Shown: positions 2,386 through 35,004 of the stretch, piece by piece
Layout: each line of letters opens with the position of its first letter
How positions within the stretch are numbered: position 1 is the first letter of the stretch
From: a virus
Strand: one strand, 5' to 3'
IMG/VR virus record: IMGVR_UViG_3300017755_000013
Span: 1-42,574 of that record
Length of the DNA: 42,574 nt
Notes under the pieces: generated by a model
Seen by the model: only the letters and a program-made list of their open reading frames with translations
What the model was told of the DNA's origin: nothing
Database searches by the model: none
Program-made: the position numbers and the translations under genes

Positions 2386-2784
2386 ATGAAAAAATTCAGT
2401 CAATTCATAACAGAAACAAAACAAGTTGGTGGACTTTCTTCAACAGAAATACCACACGACATTGATGATGCAGAAGTTAAGGCTAAAATCAATGCTGTCT
2501 TAGGACATACAGCAAGTTCAGAATACATGAACCCACAAGCTGCAGTCGAACAAATGAAGGCAAAACTCGAACAACTTGGACTTGCAATGATGAAACATGA
2601 TGATGTTGAGTTCAACGAAAGTGGAGAGTTTGACCTTTCTTTCTCAAGATATGGTGAAACATTTGGAAAATCAGTGGATACACCACATGATGAGTTCGAA
2701 AAAGAAGAAAAACTAGTTTCACTTAATGTGAAATACGAAAGGTTAATGAACAACAGTTACAAAGTATACGGTTCATTGGTCTAA
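2386..2784 (+). CDS. Putative packaged internal head protein (CTS-like N-terminus)
   Basis: The 132-residue product begins MKKFSQFITE. T4 internal proteins start with a ten-residue capsid-targeting sequence of the form MKTYQEFIAE, which the gp21 prohead protease removes after the (L/I)xE site. Here I8-T9-E10 fits in spacing and chemistry. The remaining 122 residues are acidic, helical then beta, with no family recognised. The ATG follows an A-rich leader containing AGGA. If the N-terminus is a targeting signal, the mature protein would be packed in the head and injected with the DNA. Confidence 0.55.
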   Translation: MKKFSQFITETKQVGGLSSTEIPHDIDDAEVKAKINAVLGHTASSEYMNPQAAVEQMKAKLEQLGLAMMKHDDVEFNESGEFDLSFSRYGETFGKSVDTPHDEFEKEEKLVSLNVKYERLMNNSYKVYGSLV

Positions 2785-12026: not shown

Positions 12027-12637
12027 TGCACGATTGTGTTGTCATGTTCAGTGGTGGGGTTGAATCTACTGCTTTATTAAACTGGTGTGTAGAGAAAGGT
12101 AAGAAACCTATTGCACTACATTCACTATGGGACAACCCCATCACAACAGCAAATCAACTACATAGTAATATTACACAGATATGTGATATGTTGGATGTAG
12201 ATTTGATTACTCATGAGCATCCTAAATATGACCATGATGAAAGGTCAGAAGAATACTTTCATTCTGCTAGACATTGGTCAATTGCATGTTTAAGTGCATT
12301 GACTCAGTTCCCACATATAGAAGAATACTATTGGGGTGTGAACAGTGGGATGATAAACTATGCAGATGACCATAAACACTATTCTGATTGGCCATGGGTG
12401 CCACGTGCATGGGAGTTTCAAATAGTATTTGAATTCTATGCAAGGTTGATGAACAAGAATCACAACTACAGACTTTATCCACCTCTTGGTGGAATGACCA
12501 AGATGGAACAGTGGTCATCAATACCAGTGGATATAAGACAATACGTCAATTCATGTGCATTAGGTTACCCAAACCAATGTGGTGAATGTGACAAATGCTT
12601 GGAATATAAACATTTAACAAAAATATCGGGATTTTAA
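12026..12637 (+). CDS. QueC-like PP-loop ATPase (7-cyano-7-deazaguanine synthase family)
   Basis: The PP-loop SGGVES (9-14) is at the N-terminus. A C-terminal zinc site C177, C185, C188, C191 (CGECDKC) and a GVN...PPLGGMTKMEQW core match QueC, which converts 7-carboxy-7-deazaguanine to preQ0. Phages use preQ0 derivatives to modify DNA or to feed tRNA queuosine synthesis. No queD, queE, folE or DNA-inserting transglycosylase is visible here, so the product's fate is unknown. The gene is coupled to nrdB (TAATG), which favours a link with nucleotide metabolism. Confidence 0.75.
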   Translation: MHDCVVMFSGGVESTALLNWCVEKGKKPIALHSLWDNPITTANQLHSNITQICDMLDVDLITHEHPKYDHDERSEEYFHSARHWSIACLSALTQFPHIEEYYWGVNSGMINYADDHKHYSDWPWVPRAWEFQIVFEFYARLMNKNHNYRLYPPLGGMTKMEQWSSIPVDIRQYVNSCALGYPNQCGECDKCLEYKHLTKISGF

Positions 12638-12638
12638 T

Positions 12639-12893
12639 ATGATAGAAATATTTGGAAAAACACAATGTCCATTCTGTGATAAAGCAAAAGCTTTATGTGA
12701 GAAAGAAGGACTAGAATACACTTACAAACAGTTGGACACAGACTTCACAAGAGAAGAACTCTTTGAAGAGTTTCCAACTGCAAGAACCTTTCCACAAATC
12801 AGAGTCAGAGAAACAGAAAATACTTGGACTTACATAGGTGGATATGACAAACTTGCAGAGTTCGTAAAACACGGAGACGTTTGGGAAGACTAA
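12639..12893 (+). CDS. nrdC: Glutaredoxin
   Basis: The 84-residue product has the glutaredoxin active site CPFC at about residues 11-14. TFPQIRV carries the cis-proline, and the GGYDKL glutathione-binding segment follows. It most likely reduces the C-terminal Cys pair of the phage ribonucleotide reductase, as T4 NrdC does; the neighbouring nrdAB genes support this. It begins 2 nt after the QueC-like gene and overlaps the next start (TAATG). Confidence 0.92.
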   Translation: MIEIFGKTQCPFCDKAKALCEKEGLEYTYKQLDTDFTREELFEEFPTARTFPQIRVRETENTWTYIGGYDKLAEFVKHGDVWED

Positions 12894-13132
12894 TGAAACA
12901 AGTTCATGTATATCTCAATGTAAAACATAGCCAGACAGCTATAGATTTAAGACTTGAGCATATTGCAAGAACACTTGATAAAGATTTAGTAGAGATTAGA
13001 ATTTACACGTGTGGGGAAGATTTCTTTAAAAAAGATATTGATAGACCACTACCATTCGGAATGATTGATGGTAAAGCTAAATCAAATGATAACTTTTTCA
13101 AGGAAATCGTAGGAGATAAAGTTGAAGATTAG
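12893..13132 (+). CDS. Small hypothetical protein
   Basis: The 79-residue product starts at the ATG overlapping the glutaredoxin stop codon; an in-frame ATG 12 nt upstream is less likely because it lies inside the glutaredoxin gene. The N-terminal beta-strand KQVHVYLNV and a single Cys (YTCGEDFF) are the only notable features. I recognise no family. Near its 3' end is an AGGAG that appears to serve a short zinc-ribbon gene. Confidence 0.65.
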   Translation: MKQVHVYLNVKHSQTAIDLRLEHIARTLDKDLVEIRIYTCGEDFFKKDIDRPLPFGMIDGKAKSNDNFFKEIVGDKVED

Positions 13133-13274
13133 ATTACACTGCAACGACTGTAAATCAGAGTGCATAGTAGAACATGAAATGGATTCACACCAGTATGGAA
13201 TCGAACATTGTCCATTTTGTGGCGCACAAATGGATGAAGATACAATAGAAGAGGTATTTGAATACGACGATTAG
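13122..13274 (+). CDS. Short zinc-ribbon protein (TTG start)
   Basis: This 50-residue frame has two CxxC pairs, C7-x2-C10 and C30-x2-C33 (CPFCGAQM), the classic zinc ribbon. A strong AGGAG at 13111-13115 sits 6 nt before TTG 13122; no ATG occurs before the first Cys pair. The gene overlaps the previous one by 11 nt. The acidic tail is DEDTIEEVFEYDD. Its small size and zinc ribbon suggest a nucleic-acid- or protein-binding accessory factor. The start codon is inferred from the ribosome-binding site. Confidence 0.7.
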   Translation: MKIRLHCNDCKSECIVEHEMDSHQYGIEHCPFCGAQMDEDTIEEVFEYDD

Positions 13275-13278
13275 GGCC

Positions 13279-26016: not shown

Positions 26017-27216
26017 ATGAGAATAATTGGAATCAATTCCAGCCATGACACTTCTTTGTGTATCATGGAAGACGGTGAAGTCAAAGAACTCTTTGAAGAA
26101 GAGAGAGAACGTCGAGATAAGTACTATTCACCGAATATAAACAACCCCGAATTACATGTAGTAGACTCTAAAGGAGTTGCAGATGCATTAATCAACGAAG
26201 ATGGTACCCCATGTGGTGAACTTATCTTTGCTTCTTTCGATAGACGTGTATGTCAGATAGACATGGACAAAGAATATCTTATGGAGAATAGATTAATTGC
26301 AGAAGAAGTAGCAGTTGCATTTTCAAAAGAACAACTCAGTCTTAAAAGACTAGAAGAAATATCAGAAGAGTTTCCTAAACTCGGACTAAAGTTCGACTGG
26401 CACGAAGATATGGATGAAGCTATACACGATGCAATGTGTAAACAGTTTCATGAGGTAGAAGAATATCATTTTGATATCGAACATCATATGTATCATGCAT
26501 ACAGTGGTTACTTCCTAAGTCCTTTCTATGAGAAGGGTGAGGATGCAATGGCTATCGCATGGGACGGTGGCGGTGCAAAGTGTTTGCACAAAGAGTATCC
26601 GAACTACCAAGAGATTGAATCTATTTGGTCTTGTAACTTTGAGAAGAAAGAGATTCTACCCCAATGGAAGAAGATGTCTAATCACCGTGAGTTAGGTTCA
26701 CTTGCAAGTAAGTATTTCCCTAACATGTACTATGATTCAGCACACTGTTTACAGGATAAGGTAGTCAACGATGACTCTACTAATAATATCCCTACAGTGT
26801 TCACTAGCTTCCCTTCTAGCGGTATGAACTTCAGTAACATGAGTTATGCCTTCGGTGCAGATGCTCATGGACGTGCAGCGGGTAAGGTAATGGGTATGGC
26901 ATCATACGGAAGACTATATGAAGATAGACCCGATAGATTTGATAGACATATCGTTGCACAAATGTGTGAGGAAGAATCATTTAAGAATGCATGTATTGTT
27001 ATAAGACGTGCAATGGAATTAAATCCCGATTGTAAGAACCTAGTACTCAGTGGTGGGTTCTCATTAAATTGTACAAACAATTATAGATACCTAGAAGAGT
27101 TCCCCGAATTAAATATATTTGTTGACCCTGTACCCCATGATGGTGGTACTGCACTTGGAGCTGCATACTGGTTGCATTATTATAATCAGAAACAACAGGA
27201 GACTACAAATGATTAA
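26017..27216 (+). CDS. Carbamoyltransferase, N-terminal (Kae1-like) subunit
   Basis: This corresponds to the catalytic ASKHA-type domain of NodU/CmcH-family O-carbamoyltransferases: GINSSHDTSLCIMEDGEV at the start, metal-binding His residues in the EHHMYHAYSGYF region, a WDGGG nucleotide-binding turn and an LSGGFSLNC segment late. The frame ends at 399 residues, just after HDGGTALGAAYW, where family members normally continue into a second domain. That domain is in the next gene, which overlaps by 8 nt. The pair would carbamoylate a hydroxyl on a sugar or modified base; the acceptor is unknown. Confidence 0.85.
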   Translation: MRIIGINSSHDTSLCIMEDGEVKELFEEERERRDKYYSPNINNPELHVVDSKGVADALINEDGTPCGELIFASFDRRVCQIDMDKEYLMENRLIAEEVAVAFSKEQLSLKRLEEISEEFPKLGLKFDWHEDMDEAIHDAMCKQFHEVEEYHFDIEHHMYHAYSGYFLSPFYEKGEDAMAIAWDGGGAKCLHKEYPNYQEIESIWSCNFEKKEILPQWKKMSNHRELGSLASKYFPNMYYDSAHCLQDKVVNDDSTNNIPTVFTSFPSSGMNFSNMSYAFGADAHGRAAGKVMGMASYGRLYEDRPDRFDRHIVAQMCEEESFKNACIVIRRAMELNPDCKNLVLSGGFSLNCTNNYRYLEEFPELNIFVDPVPHDGGTALGAAYWLHYYNQKQQETTND

Positions 27217-27847
27217 AGCAGAAGTCATAAGAGACCAAGACCAAGTAATCGAATTACTTACAGATAAACAACAGGTTATTGGTATGTTTCAAAACGGTTC
27301 CGAATGGGGCCCACGTGCATTAGGTAATCGTTCAATATTATTTGACCCTACTAATCCAAATGCAAAACAAATTGTTAATACAATTAAGAAGAGAGAATAT
27401 TATAGACCATTTGCTGGTACTGTATTAAAAGAACATGCACATGAATATTTTAAAATGTTGCAGTTAGAAGAGTCTCCTTATATGTCGTTTGCAATTCAAT
27501 GTAAGAAGAAAGCATACGAAGAGATTCCTGCTATTGTTCATGCAGATGGTACATGTAGAATTCAAACAGTTACAGAAGAACAAAATAAAAATTATTATAA
27601 TTTAATTAAAGCATTAGGTGAAAAGAATGGCACCCCTATTATATTTAATACATCATTTAATTTAGGTGGTGAAGCTTTAGTGGAAACTATCTTCGATGCA
27701 ATTGATACATGTAACCGTTCAGATATTAATTATCTCTATGTACCCGAAGACCAAACTGGAGATATTCCTTATGAATTATTTAAACCTAAAAAAGATAAAC
27801 ATGATAACGACGCTAATGACCACGGCGTATGGGAGTCTGAAGTATAA
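27209..27847 (+). CDS. Carbamoyltransferase, C-terminal domain as a separate protein
   Basis: The product contains FQNGSEWGPRALGNRSIL near residue 25, followed by NTIKKREYYRPFA and FNTSFNLGGEALV, the hallmarks of the C-terminal YrdC-like half of NodU/CmcH carbamoyltransferases. It starts at ATG 27209 with AGGAG 7 nt upstream, so it looks independently translated, not a frameshift ruin. Both halves are intact and together match the usual full length. The stop codon overlaps a late box for the next gene. Confidence 0.85.
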   Translation: MIKAEVIRDQDQVIELLTDKQQVIGMFQNGSEWGPRALGNRSILFDPTNPNAKQIVNTIKKREYYRPFAGTVLKEHAHEYFKMLQLEESPYMSFAIQCKKKAYEEIPAIVHADGTCRIQTVTEEQNKNYYNLIKALGEKNGTPIIFNTSFNLGGEALVETIFDAIDTCNRSDINYLYVPEDQTGDIPYELFKPKKDKHDNDANDHGVWESEV

Positions 27848-27850
27848 ATA
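27843..27850 (+). promoter_or_regulatory. T4 late promoter (exact TATAAATA), leaderless geometry
   Basis: TATAAATA contains the upstream stop codon and ends exactly 5 nt before ATG 27856. No Shine-Dalgarno is visible. Confidence 0.65.
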
Positions 27851-27855
27851 CTTCT

Positions 27856-28182
27856 ATGATAGAAGTTACAGACATTGCCATAGCAAAACTTATAGAAAAA
27901 CAAGTAGACAAAGTTAGACTAGGAGTTACAGGTGGTGGTTGCAGTGGATACGAATATGTTTTCATCCGTGACGAATACCAAGACGGTGACCTAGAAATAG
28001 ATTACGGTAAGTTTAAATTTTTAATAGATAGAATGAGTCAACCTTTTTTAAATGGTATGACTTTAGATTATGAACAACAGGGATTAAATGAAACGTTCAC
28101 GTTTCAGAATCCTAATGAAGAAGCCAGTTGTGGTTGTGGAGTGAGTATTACTTTTAATGAAGACATCATCAGCAAAAGCTAA
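27856..28182 (+). CDS. A-type iron-sulfur cluster carrier (IscA/ErpA-like)
   Basis: The three conserved cysteines of the HesB/IscA family are present: C29 in GGGCSGYEY and C92, C94 in SCGCGVS. At 108 residues it has the normal length. It would deliver Fe-S clusters, perhaps to the phage radical SAM enzyme or to host enzymes. A-type carriers are known from marine phages. The start sits 5 nt behind an exact late box. It overlaps the nuclease gene by 26 nt. Confidence 0.9.
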   Translation: MIEVTDIAIAKLIEKQVDKVRLGVTGGGCSGYEYVFIRDEYQDGDLEIDYGKFKFLIDRMSQPFLNGMTLDYEQQGLNETFTFQNPNEEASCGCGVSITFNEDIISKS

Positions 28183-28540
28183 AGGACGTAAACTACAACA
28201 GTGGTTTCGTAATCTTCTAGTAGAGAAGTTAGAGTTAGACCCCGAAGATTCAGAGTCTAGACCTATGGGTTCTCAAGGTGAGGATATTATCCTAGGTACA
28301 GAGTCCCGAAGATTATTTCCATACAGTGTAGAGTGTAAGAACCAAGAAGCAGTTAACGTGTGGAATGCATACACACAAGCAGAAAGCAATTGTGGTAAGT
28401 ACGAACCTATTGTTGTAATTAAAAGAAACAGACATAAACCATTGGTGTTGGTGGATGCAGAATACTTTGTAGAGTTGCATAAGAAACCATTAACCCCATT
28501 AGAAGAACAAGCCATACAGGTGGGATTAAAAAAGAAATGA
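28157..28540 (+). CDS. PDDEXK-type nuclease
   Basis: The 127-residue product has SRPMGSQGEDIIL followed by FPYSVECKNQE, giving a D43...E59-x-K61 PDDEXK core of the restriction/resolvase type. A basic N-terminal helix (KAKGRKLQQWFRNLL) precedes it, as in small Hjc- or VRR-like enzymes. It could process recombination intermediates or degrade host DNA. It ends by ATGA overlap with the ATP-grasp gene. Confidence 0.72.
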   Translation: MKTSSAKAKGRKLQQWFRNLLVEKLELDPEDSESRPMGSQGEDIILGTESRRLFPYSVECKNQEAVNVWNAYTQAESNCGKYEPIVVIKRNRHKPLVLVDAEYFVELHKKPLTPLEEQAIQVGLKKK

Positions 28541-29919
28541 AATCATTTCAAGAATTAATAGTAGAAGAAGACGTTAAGAAATCAGACCCTTATCGTCTTG
28601 TTGTTATCGCAGAACGTCCTAAGAAACAATCTAAGAAATCTACCAGTGGTAAGATAGTTGGTGTTGCAGAAAAGTTAGGTATGGATGTTTACAACGTTCG
28701 TGTCAATGGTGCATACCTAGAACGTGATGATGAGTCTGGCGTTATCTCTATTCACAATGCAGACGATGAGAAAGGATTCGAGATTGATGCAGACACATTA
28801 GTTATGATTCGTGGTGCAGTAACAACTAAGGATTCCTACCTTGATTTAATCTCTCAGATTGAACGCTACGGTATTGCAACATGCAACCCTAGGGAATGTA
28901 TCGAAGTTTGTTCAGACAAGTTTAGAACGTATCTGAGACTGCAAGAGATAGGTCTAAACCAACCACGTACCGTATTGATTCCAAACGATGAACCCGAGAC
29001 CGTAGATAGAGCTCACGAAGCATTAGATAATAATTTCCCGATGGTACTCAAAACATTACAGGGTTCTAAAGGTGTAGGTGTTCTACTCATCGAAACAGAA
29101 CGGTCACTACAATCACAGGTCAGCTTGATTTATAAGATTGACCCCTACTGTGATATTCTATTACAAGAGTATATCGAATCAGATTACGATGTACGTGTTG
29201 TCATTGTCAACAGAGAAATTGTTGGTGCAATGAGACGAAACAAAATTACAGATGACTTTAGAAGTAATGTATCCCAAGGTGCAGATGCACAATCAGTTAC
29301 ATTGACAGAGTTAGAAAAAGATGTTTGTCTAAGAGCTAGCAAAGCCGTCAACGGACAATGGTGTGGTGTAGACTTTATTCCTAGCAAAAACAGAAAGACT
29401 GAACCACCATACCTATTGGAAGTAAATCATTCGCCAGGCACTGAAGGAATCTCTAAGGTTATCGGTGAGGACATTGTTAAGATGGTTCTTAAGATTTACA
29501 GAGACAGAGACATATGGAAGAAGTCACCAACAGAGTGTGGTGTATTAGAAACCATCGAAGTCGAAGGTCAAGAAATGACAGTGAAGTTAGACACAGGTAA
29601 TTCAGTTACAGCTTGTTCACTTCATGCAGAAGATTTAAAGGTCAACGGTAAGATAGTTACATGGACAACAGAGGGTGTTAAGTATAAGAAACCATTAAAG
29701 AGAATGGTTACTTTATTAAAACCAGCTGAAGACAGACCAGTCGTAGAACTTGAATTAAATTTTCTAAACACTATATACGAACAAGAAGTTAGTTTAGATA
29801 GTAGAGGTGTCATTCCTTTTCTTGCAAATCGTGACTTAATGCAACGTGCAAACTTAATGATAAATCCAGCACGTAAGTTTATGATTACGAACAAGAGAGA
29901 TGAAAAAGACGATAGTTAA
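28537..29919 (+). CDS. RimK-like ATP-grasp ligase fused to retropepsin-like protease, CTS-like N-terminus
   Basis: Residues 18-325 form an ATP-grasp ligase of the RimK type: a VLKTLQGSKGVGV loop with K172, an EYIESDYDVRV strand and a metal-binding LEVNHSPGTEGI (E295). Residues 333-455 match the retropepsin-like RimB/ATP-dependent zinc protease family, with catalytic D352-T-G in KLDTGNSVTAC and a terminal FLANRDLM...NPARKFMI. RimK adds glutamates to ribosomal S6, and RimB-type proteases act with it. The N-terminus MKSFQELIVE mimics the T4 capsid-targeting sequence with an (L/I)xE site at residue 10. It starts by ATGA overlap. Confidence 0.82.
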   Translation: MKSFQELIVEEDVKKSDPYRLVVIAERPKKQSKKSTSGKIVGVAEKLGMDVYNVRVNGAYLERDDESGVISIHNADDEKGFEIDADTLVMIRGAVTTKDSYLDLISQIERYGIATCNPRECIEVCSDKFRTYLRLQEIGLNQPRTVLIPNDEPETVDRAHEALDNNFPMVLKTLQGSKGVGVLLIETERSLQSQVSLIYKIDPYCDILLQEYIESDYDVRVVIVNREIVGAMRRNKITDDFRSNVSQGADAQSVTLTELEKDVCLRASKAVNGQWCGVDFIPSKNRKTEPPYLLEVNHSPGTEGISKVIGEDIVKMVLKIYRDRDIWKKSPTECGVLETIEVEGQEMTVKLDTGNSVTACSLHAEDLKVNGKIVTWTTEGVKYKKPLKRMVTLLKPAEDRPVVELELNFLNTIYEQEVSLDSRGVIPFLANRDLMQRANLMINPARKFMITNKRDEKDDS

Positions 29920-33679: not shown

Positions 33680-34091
33680 GTTATCAGAAGTATTACCCCT
33701 TGATTTAAACAAAGTTAGTCCAAGATACGTAGAACGTTTTTCTGAAATAGAGGATGACGTTCTTCGTTTTAATTTCCCTACCGAATACACAATCCGTTTA
33801 GGTATCCAATACGATACCCCATTCGTTAATCTTTATCTAGAAGACAATGAGCTGATTTTCTCAGCACACGATTTAAACAAAGACGGATTACACGTTAGAC
33901 CATATCTTTACAATAGACATGGTGACCCAAGAAGTTGTAAAATCAACGAAGACAAATCATCACAGTTTTTTATCATCCCCAAATACTTTACAGAAGGAGA
34001 GTTTAACATTGGCGACTCAATTGAGTTTTCTTACCACGAACAGATTTTGGATGAACAAGAAAGACAAATCAGAGTTAAACGTGTCACGTAA
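33642..34091 (+). CDS. Conserved beta-rich hypothetical protein
   Basis: The 149-residue product contains YTIRLGIQYDTPFVNLYLED, a beta-rich core I have seen in marine T4-like phage proteins without function. It overlaps the large acidic gene by 38 nt and the radical SAM gene by about 40 nt. The first ATG (33642) has GGAG upstream; ATG 33648 is an alternative. Confidence 0.65.
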   Translation: MTMILCETVDTSKLSEVLPLDLNKVSPRYVERFSEIEDDVLRFNFPTEYTIRLGIQYDTPFVNLYLEDNELIFSAHDLNKDGLHVRPYLYNRHGDPRSCKINEDKSSQFFIIPKYFTEGEFNIGDSIEFSYHEQILDEQERQIRVKRVT

Positions 34092-35004
34092 TATTCCAAT
34101 CACTGCAGTTGACCAGTATGATTTTCTAGAACACCGTAGGAAGCAAGAAGAGAAACATTGGAGTCGACAAGGAGAGTTGACAGAACTTAGTTCTATTCTC
34201 ACAGTCGAAGTTAACACTACAGAGTTGTGCAACAGGACATGTTCATTTTGTCCACGTGCAAATCCCGAAGTGTTTCCAAATAGAAACTTACATATGACAC
34301 CCAAGGCTGCAAAGACTATTGGAGACGAATTACATAAGAATGGATTTAGTGGTAAGATATCGTTAAGTGGATACGGAGAAAATTTACTTAATCCTAGGTT
34401 CCAAGAAATTGTGCATACGTTTAGACACAGTGTTCCGAATGCAACATTAGAGTGTAACACTAACGGAGATAAACTTACTAGAGAATATGCAGAAGAGTTG
34501 TTTGAGTTTAGTGGATTAGATTTACTCTACATTAATCTTTATGACGGAGTAGAACAGATAGAACACTTTGATGAAGTGATGAAATACATTCCCGAAGAAA
34601 GATACAAGTACAGAATGCATTGGGGAGATTTCGTAACACATGGATTGATACTAAACAATCGAAGTGGTGTAATGGATTGGGTAGGAATAGAGGAGTCTAC
34701 AATTGAAGCACTTAAAGGTAAGCCATGTCATTATCCTTTTTATAAAATGTTTGTTGATTGGAATGGTGATGTTTTATTCTGTTCCAATGACTGGGGTAGA
34801 GAGCATGTTGTAGGTAACTTATTATCAGAGACCCTACATAATGTATGGTTCTCTAAACCCATGAATAAGATTAGAAAAAAATTAATAAAGGGGAACAGAG
34901 ATATGTCCCCATGTAATAAGTGCAGTGTCGATGGTAGCTTATTTGGTAAACAATCGTTCGACATAGTGAGTGAATATTATGAAGGTAGCAATAACAGGAA
35001 GTAG
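34051..35004 (+). CDS. Radical SAM enzyme with SPASM-like C-terminus
   Basis: The radical SAM cluster motif CNRTCSFC is present (C60, C64, C67 counted from ATG 34051), followed by a LSGYGENLLNP segment equivalent to the GGE motif region. The C-terminal part has further Cys residues (GKPCHYPF, VLFCSNDW, SPCNKCSVDG) consistent with a SPASM-type auxiliary cluster. The reaction is unknown; SPASM enzymes often modify peptides or sugars. The start is uncertain (ATG 34051 or GTG 34081); neither has a Shine-Dalgarno. It overlaps the SDR-like gene by 26 nt. Confidence 0.85.
   Translation: MNKKDKSELNVSRNIPITAVDQYDFLEHRRKQEEKHWSRQGELTELSSILTVEVNTTELCNRTCSFCPRANPEVFPNRNLHMTPKAAKTIGDELHKNGFSGKISLSGYGENLLNPRFQEIVHTFRHSVPNATLECNTNGDKLTREYAEELFEFSGLDLLYINLYDGVEQIEHFDEVMKYIPEERYKYRMHWGDFVTHGLILNNRSGVMDWVGIEESTIEALKGKPCHYPFYKMFVDWNGDVLFCSNDWGREHVVGNLLSETLHNVWFSKPMNKIRKKLIKGNRDMSPCNKCSVDGSLFGKQSFDIVSEYYEGSNNRK

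What the first reader, a model, noticed from the sequence alone, without database searches (positions are those of the whole stretch)
28537..29919. RimK-like ligase plus retropepsin protease with a capsid-targeting-like N-terminus
One protein joins an ATP-grasp ligase (K172 loop, E295-V-N) to a RimB-like protease (D352-T-G). The first ten residues, MKSFQELIVE, follow the T4 internal-protein targeting sequence with the prohead-protease (L/I)xE site at residue 10. If packaged, it would be injected with the DNA and could add or remove amino-acid tails on host proteins, such as ribosomal S6, before any phage gene is expressed.
Basis: partly seen in the sequence, partly recalled or inferred. Interest (0 to 1): 0.7.

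Follow-up and report, generated by a model that had tools for sequence, protein, structure and literature searches.

The report
Capsid-tagged RimK–RimB enzyme of marine phages
A common enzyme of marine T4-like viruses, which probably adds and removes glutamate tails on proteins such as a ribosomal protein, carries a conserved address tag that in phage T4 sends proteins into the virus head, so it may be injected into the host cell together with the viral DNA.

Summary
ORF 28537-29919 (460 aa, unambiguous ATG) is a RimK-type ATP-grasp ligase (residues 19-328) fused to a RimB/DUF785 retropepsin-like protease (335-450, D352-T-G). Both folds were confirmed by AlphaFold models against solved RimK and RloA/DUF785 structures. 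Phage RimK with a C-terminal DUF785 domain next to regA was already reported from marine metagenomes in 2008, so the enzyme itself is not new.

What I found no report of is the N-terminus. Residues 1-18 lie outside the RimK fold and carry a T4-type capsid-targeting sequence. The motif is present in 70 of 73 full-length homologues (42-100% identity), and its conserved positions (4, 7, 8, 10) are the ones that mutagenesis of T4 IPIII showed to matter. It is under stronger purifying selection than the adjoining linker. Related genomes encode the gp21 protease and keep an LxE|A site in gp23. A T4-type late-promoter box heads the gene cluster. A distant RimK-RimB homologue was found by LC-MS/MS in virions of Yersinia phage YerA41. 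Cyanophage, faecal-phage and cellular RimKs lack the tag.

Packaging and injection are therefore well supported but not shown here. The substrate (host S6) is inference.

The parts
28537..29916 (+). RimK-RimB fusion protein, 460 aa (stop codon 29917-29919)
28537..28566 (+). residues 1-10 MKSFQELIVE: T4-type capsid-targeting sequence with predicted gp21 cleavage after E10 (IVE|E)
   Evidence: conserved in 70/73 homologues; positions 4, 7, 8, 10 as in T4 IPIII; purifying selection
28567..28590 (+). residues 11-18: variable, disordered linker between the tag and the RimK fold
   Evidence: low pLDDT 1-17; high pN/pS; RimK structures align from residue 19
28591..29520 (+). residues 19-328: RimK-type ATP-grasp ligase (K128, K172, R220, R234, FRSN 241-244, D279, E295-V-N)
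   Evidence: Z 30.8 to P. syringae RimK 7qys; 30.3 to RimK-RpsF complex 5zk6
29539..29886 (+). residues 335-450: RimB/DUF785 retropepsin-like aspartic protease (D352-T-G-N, H363)
   Evidence: Z 15.2-15.4 to RloA 9g58 and Lpg0085 2pma; about 9 to retroviral proteases
27843..27850 (+). TATAAATA, T4-type late-promoter box heading the IscA-like / PDDEXK / RimK-RimB cluster
   Evidence: conserved with unrelated upstream sequence in relatives; same box 5 bp before the gp20 portal gene and before gp18, gp22, gp8 and gp4 in G001
27856..28182 (+). IscA/HesB-like Fe-S protein, first gene of the cluster
   Evidence: PF01521 7.7e-16
28157..28540 (+). PDDEXK-type phage endonuclease, second gene; stop overlaps the start of the fusion gene
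   Evidence: PF24608 3.7e-5, just under the curated cut-off; phrog_244 2.3e-20

Best explanation
The gene encodes a phage writer/eraser of glutamate tails (RimK ligase plus RimB protease) made as a head-internal protein. Its first ten residues act as a T4-type capsid-targeting sequence: they draw it into the prohead core, the gp21 protease cuts after E10 (IVE|E), the mature 450-residue enzyme stays with the DNA and enters the next host on injection. There it most likely alters C-terminal glutamylation of a host protein, with ribosomal protein S6 on the 30S platform as the leading candidate, before phage genes are translated. Shown here: both domains, intact active-site residues, motif conservation and selection, gp21 and its site in relatives, late-promoter box. 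Inferred: packaging, cleavage, injection, substrate. My separate estimates: RimK-RimB enzyme 0.97; packaged through the tag 0.75; acts on S6 0.4.
For: Enzyme: PF08443 9.5e-35; RimK structures Z about 30 with the ATP, metal and phosphate-contacting residues kept; RimB fold Z 15 to DUF785/RloA peptidases; DTG invariant in all 34 aligned proteins. Tag: residues 1-18 precede the RimK fold and are disordered. The motif occurs in 70 of 73 homologues, and E10 and F4 are nearly invariant. The conserved positions match those that control targeting (4, 7) and processing (8, 10) in T4 IPIII (PMC9026906); real T4 IPs read MKTYQEFIAEA. pN/pS is 0.34 and 0.23 in the tag against 0.72 and 0.48 in the linker. 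gp21 (PF03420) is in G001, Mosig and Melnitz, and gp23 keeps LEE|A or LSE|A. Other unrelated proteins of these genomes carry the same tag, among them a DUF6267 protein whose Pfam domain starts at residue 16. TATAAATA heads the cluster as it does true late genes. YerA41 gp066, a 35% identical RimK-RimB, is annotated structural, and the paper's virion LC-MS/MS list marks a 'Ribosomal protein modification protein'.
Against: No virion proteomics exists, to my knowledge, for any tagged member. The gene sits among replication genes (regA, gp43) in the Mosig-type clade, where the upstream late box is present in only some members. YerA41 lacks a T4-type tag and its virion list includes many replication enzymes, so that detection could partly be carry-over. 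Cyanophage RimKs work without the tag. No substrate test was possible. A few members (L020) have a poor motif.
Confidence: 0.62

Rival explanations
1. The protein is an ordinary early/middle takeover enzyme made after infection that modifies host S6 or other proteins; the N-terminal motif is a docking peptide for another partner and not a packaging signal.
For: In the Mosig-type clade the gene lies between regA and DNA polymerase gp43, in the clamp / clamp-loader / regA neighbourhood. Cyanophage and faecal-phage RimKs have no tag. Monier et al. 2008 proposed intracellular modification of the host translation apparatus (PMC2530865).
Against: The same tag recurs on unrelated proteins of these genomes, its conserved positions equal those needed for T4 capsid targeting and processing, and the window's clade has a late-promoter box.
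Confidence: 0.22
2. The enzyme is packaged but works on phage head proteins: it trims or adds glutamate runs on the scaffold core during maturation, and does not act on the host.
For: RimB needs about six consecutive glutamates (PMC11957791), and the G001 scaffold gp22 contains a run of six (KEEEEEEV). Core proteins are where targeted proteins reside.
Against: Mosig and Melnitz gp22 showed no such run in the scan; gp21 already degrades the core; a ligase is not needed for that.
Confidence: 0.08
3. The ligase acts on a different acceptor (a LysW-like carrier, a defence protein, or free polyglutamate), so the enzyme is packaged but is not an S6 modifier.
For: LysX/ArgX fit the model about as well as RimK (Z 28.0-30.8). 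RimB stimulates poly-alpha-glutamate synthesis by RimK (PMC11957791 abstract).
Against: By sequence RimK structures score far better than LysX (4e-26 to 3e-25 against 2e-13), and RimB is dedicated to polyglutamate in the characterised systems.
Confidence: 0.25

Closest known systems
Marine phage RimK and RimK-DUF785 reported by Monier, Claverie and Ogata 2008 (PMC2530865)
   Same: Same enzyme, same T4-like context next to regA, same C-terminal DUF785 in several members; more than a hundred metagenomic contigs.
   Different: The passages read do not mention a capsid-targeting N-terminus or packaging; they suggest modification of the host translation apparatus.
Bacterial RimABK / RimBK hybrid (Pseudomonas fluorescens, Desulfotalea psychrophila; PMC11957791)
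   Same: Same two catalytic domains, RimK ligase and DTG retropepsin-like RimB; the hybrid cleaves polyglutamylated RpsF.
   Different: Bacterial hybrids have RimB before RimK; here RimB follows RimK (an order also noted in haloarchaea), with an 18-residue N-terminal extension.
T4 internal proteins IPI-IPIII and Alt
   Same: Ten-residue N-terminal targeting sequence with gp21 site (L/I)xE; proteins packaged and injected to act on the host.
   Different: The cargo here is a protein glutamyl ligase/protease, unrelated to the T4 cargoes.
Yersinia phage YerA41 gp066
   Same: Same RimK-RimB order, 35% identity, detected among virion proteins.
   Different: No T4-type targeting sequence; a different phage group.

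Membership tests
RimK-type ATP-grasp ligases (PF08443) | Profile match above cut-off and RimK fold | tested here: met
   120 bits against cut-off 21; Z about 30 to RimK structures
RimK-type ATP-grasp ligases (PF08443) | Nucleotide and metal residues kept (Lys, Asp, Glu-x-Asn, Arg) | tested here: met
   K128, K172, R220, R234, D279, E295, N297 invariant in 34 homologues and matched in 7qyr
RimK-type ATP-grasp ligases (PF08443) | Adds glutamate to the S6 C-terminus | not testable with these tools
   needs an enzyme assay
RimB / DUF785 retropepsin-like peptidases (PF05618) | Profile match | tested here: met
   33 of 34 homologous domains match at E up to 0.01, best 3.5e-10; the window's own domain scores 25.2 bits against a cut-off of 27
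RimB / DUF785 retropepsin-like peptidases (PF05618) | Retropepsin fold with catalytic DTG | tested here: met
   Z 15.4 to 2pma and 15.2 to 9g58; D352-T-G invariant; equals catalytic D31 of RimB
RimB / DUF785 retropepsin-like peptidases (PF05618) | Cleaves polyglutamate | not testable with these tools
   needs an assay
T4-type capsid-targeted internal proteins | About 10-residue N-terminal motif with determinants at 4, 7, 8, 10 and (L/I)xE | tested here: met
T4-type capsid-targeted internal proteins | gp21-type prohead protease in the phage and cleaved gp23 site | tested here: met
   met in near relatives: gp21 in G001, Mosig and Melnitz, gp23 site in G001 and Mosig; the window itself is a fragment without the head genes
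T4-type capsid-targeted internal proteins | Present and processed in virions | not testable with these tools
   only the distant YerA41 homologue was seen in virions
RimBK hybrid of bacteria | RimB domain N-terminal to RimK | tested here: not met
   order is RimK then RimB

The most novel reading that the evidence does not exclude
Abundant marine T4-like phages carry a ready-made polyglutamylation writer/eraser in the virion and inject it with the DNA to reset the host's ribosome (S6, next to the phage-encoded bS21 that related records also carry) before the first phage protein is made: a virion-delivered ribosome-modifying enzyme.
Probability: 0.35. Interest if true: 0.82.

Novelty: new variant of a known kind. 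Interest (0 to 1): 0.6.

Why it matters
T4's injected enzymes act on RNA polymerase (Alt) or on restriction enzymes (IPI). If this reading is right, some of the commonest viruses in the ocean inject an enzyme that edits translation or another host protein by adding and trimming glutamate chains. It would explain why phage RimK, known since 2008, has an extra N-terminus, and it gives a simple sequence rule for finding other injected proteins of marine T4-like phages (here also DUF6267 and a nucleotidyltransferase-kinase fusion).

Tried and rejected
Chance N-terminal match: rejected, because the motif is conserved across 42-100% identity and under purifying selection. Wrong start codon: rejected, because the ATG is the first start after the stop and overlaps the upstream stop codon. 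Inactive or decayed enzyme: rejected, because all checked active-site residues are invariant and pN/pS is 0.21-0.28 in both domains. General property of phage RimK: rejected, because cyanophage (S-RIM8, S-RIM32) and human-faecal phage RimKs lack the tag and the RimB domain. Late box by chance: TATAAATA alone is not enriched in the window (6 against 4.5 expected), but its conservation before the IscA-like gene with unrelated upstream sequence, and its placement before known late genes, argue that it is real. Host S6 tail: one alphaproteobacterial S6 was read (ends ...EKDAN), but the true host of the window phage is unknown, so it says nothing. A retroviral origin of the protease is not suggested: DUF785/RloA peptidases fit far better than retroviral proteases (Z about 15 against 9). 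The PF03420 search of the window's own record found nothing, and the controls rang nowhere, so it is uninformative.

Full report
Observation. The ATG is the first possible start after the upstream stop and overlaps the stop codon of the preceding gene. The window is a 42.6-kb viral fragment with T4-type genes such as RNase H.

What the enzyme is. Residues 126-318 match RimK (PF08443, 9.5e-35). By sequence the best solved structures are Pseudomonas RimK (7qyr, 4e-26) and E. coli RimK. An AlphaFold model of the whole protein (34 homologues, pLDDT 81) aligns with RimK chains over residues 19-328, Z 30.8 to P. syringae RimK 7qys and 30.3 to the RimK-RpsF complex 5zk6 (Foldseek agrees). The C-terminal part is a RimB/DUF785 domain: PF05618 matches 33 of 34 homologous domains, a profile finds 9g59, 2pma and 9g58, and a model of the domain alone aligns to 2pma and 9g58 with Z 15.4 and 15.2, against about 9 for retroviral proteases (Foldseek). 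The DTG motif, catalytic in RimB as D31 (PMC11957791), is invariant in 34 proteins, as are the RimK nucleotide and metal residues. pN/pS is 0.21-0.28 in both domains, so the protein is under constraint.

Already known. Monier et al. 2008 found more than a hundred marine contigs with T4-like phage rimK, first seen next to regA, several with DUF785 at the C-terminal side, and suggested modification of the host translation apparatus (PMC2530865). Bacterial RimBK hybrids with the opposite domain order have protease activity on polyglutamylated S6 (PMC11957791). The isolates Mosig (Pelagibacter) and Melnitz (Methylophilales, RimK only) carry it.

What I found no report of: the N-terminus. RimK structures begin to align at residue 19, so residues 1-18 are an extension. 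In T4, ten N-terminal residues (MKTYQEFIAE in IPII and IPIII; read from the T4 record) suffice for packaging. Residues 4 and 7 govern targeting, 8 and 10 processing, and gp21 cuts after (L/I)xE (PMC9026906). Among 73 full-length homologues 70 carry the pattern. The scan pattern itself asks for F or I, two hydrophobics and E or A, so the column counts are conditional; but F4 and E10 also come out nearly invariant in a plain alignment of 34 sequences. Examples: MKAPKFREFITEA, MEKFKSFITEQ, MKPVKFNEYITEE, MRSFSEVIREE, and Melnitz (TTG start) MTQKFSQFITEE. The next residues vary freely (about 1 bit per column). In two clades pN/pS is 0.34 and 0.23 for the tag against 0.72 and 0.48 for the linker. 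By shuffled N-termini the motif is expected 0.1-0.3 times per genome and is seen 1-4 times. The other carriers include a DUF6267 protein whose Pfam domain starts only at residue 16, and a nucleotidyltransferase-kinase fusion.

Machinery and timing. gp21 (PF03420) is present in the close relative G001, in Mosig and in Melnitz. gp23 of G001 and Mosig keeps an LxE|A at the expected site (LEE|AAP, LSE|AAP). In the window's clade a TATAAATA box stands 5-6 bp before the IscA-like gene that opens the cluster IscA-like / PDDEXK / RimK-RimB. It is kept where the upstream sequence is unrelated, and in G001 the same box precedes gp20 (also 5 bp), gp18, gp22, gp8 and gp4. This suggests late expression, as a head protein needs. 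In the Mosig-type clade the gene lies between regA and gp43, with an upstream box in only some members. This is the weakest point for packaging there, although the tag is best conserved in that clade.

Independent evidence for virion association. YerA41 gp066, a RimK-RimB of the same order, is annotated structural in the record. The paper marks 'g112 Ribosomal protein modification protein' as LC-MS/MS-identified (PMC7354516). That g112 equals gp066 is inferred from gene order. YerA41 is not T4-like in this N-terminus, and its virion list contains many replication enzymes, so carry-over is possible.

Where the tag is absent. S-RIM8 and S-RIM32 RimKs (T4-like cyanophages, no RimB) and human-faecal phage RimKs lack it. 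Cellular RimKs lack it too: solved RimK chains start at the first strand of the fold, and two microbial genome homologues show no such start.

Function. The most likely role is to set the glutamate tail of a host protein on entry. S6 is the leading candidate from RimK/RimB biochemistry (PMC11957791). Five phage records with this gene also encode a bS21 homologue; S6 and S21 both sit on the 30S platform (general knowledge). bS21 is common in marine phages (general knowledge), so this is only suggestive. RimB needs runs of about six glutamates; the G001 scaffold gp22 contains one such run, which keeps a head-maturation role open at low probability.

Verdict. The enzyme is known; the conserved capsid-targeting sequence on it, and the resulting prediction of a virion-delivered glutamyl writer/eraser, appear new in the literature searched (open-access papers only).

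Noticed in passing
window 2386-2784 (+): A second protein with a capsid-targeting-like start (MKKFSQFITET, 132 aa, no known family); its homologue in G001 (51815-51417, -) also starts MKKFNQFMAEQ. A further candidate packaged protein.
   Followed up: partly
G001 59870-58584 (-), in locus L117: Nucleotidyltransferase (CTP_transf_like) fused to a zeta-toxin/AAA-type kinase domain, starting MKKTFGKFLTEA: another enzyme with the capsid-targeting motif; the next ORF upstream starts MKSFKQFLEEE.
   Followed up: partly
Melnitz (L130) 12029-13276 (+): DUF6267 protein with a capsid-targeting-like N-terminus (MINFSKYITED, TTG start) lying outside the Pfam domain; contains a ligase-like VKWDGAPA motif.
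   Followed up: partly
L059 2170-2811 (+): ORF directly upstream of the RimK-RimB gene also begins with a targeting-like sequence (MKRFTSHFIEQ).
   Followed up: no
window 26017-27216 and 27119-27847 (+): NodU/NolO-like carbamoyltransferase split into two overlapping ORFs in different frames; the same split is seen in L040, so it may be a natural two-gene form or a programmed frameshift.
   Followed up: no
G001 and Mosig genomes: TATAAATA boxes only about 5 bp before start codons of late genes such as gp20 in G001, implying very short or absent leaders in late transcripts.
   Followed up: partly
window 33919-35004 (+): Radical SAM protein with SPASM domain in the phage.
   Followed up: no
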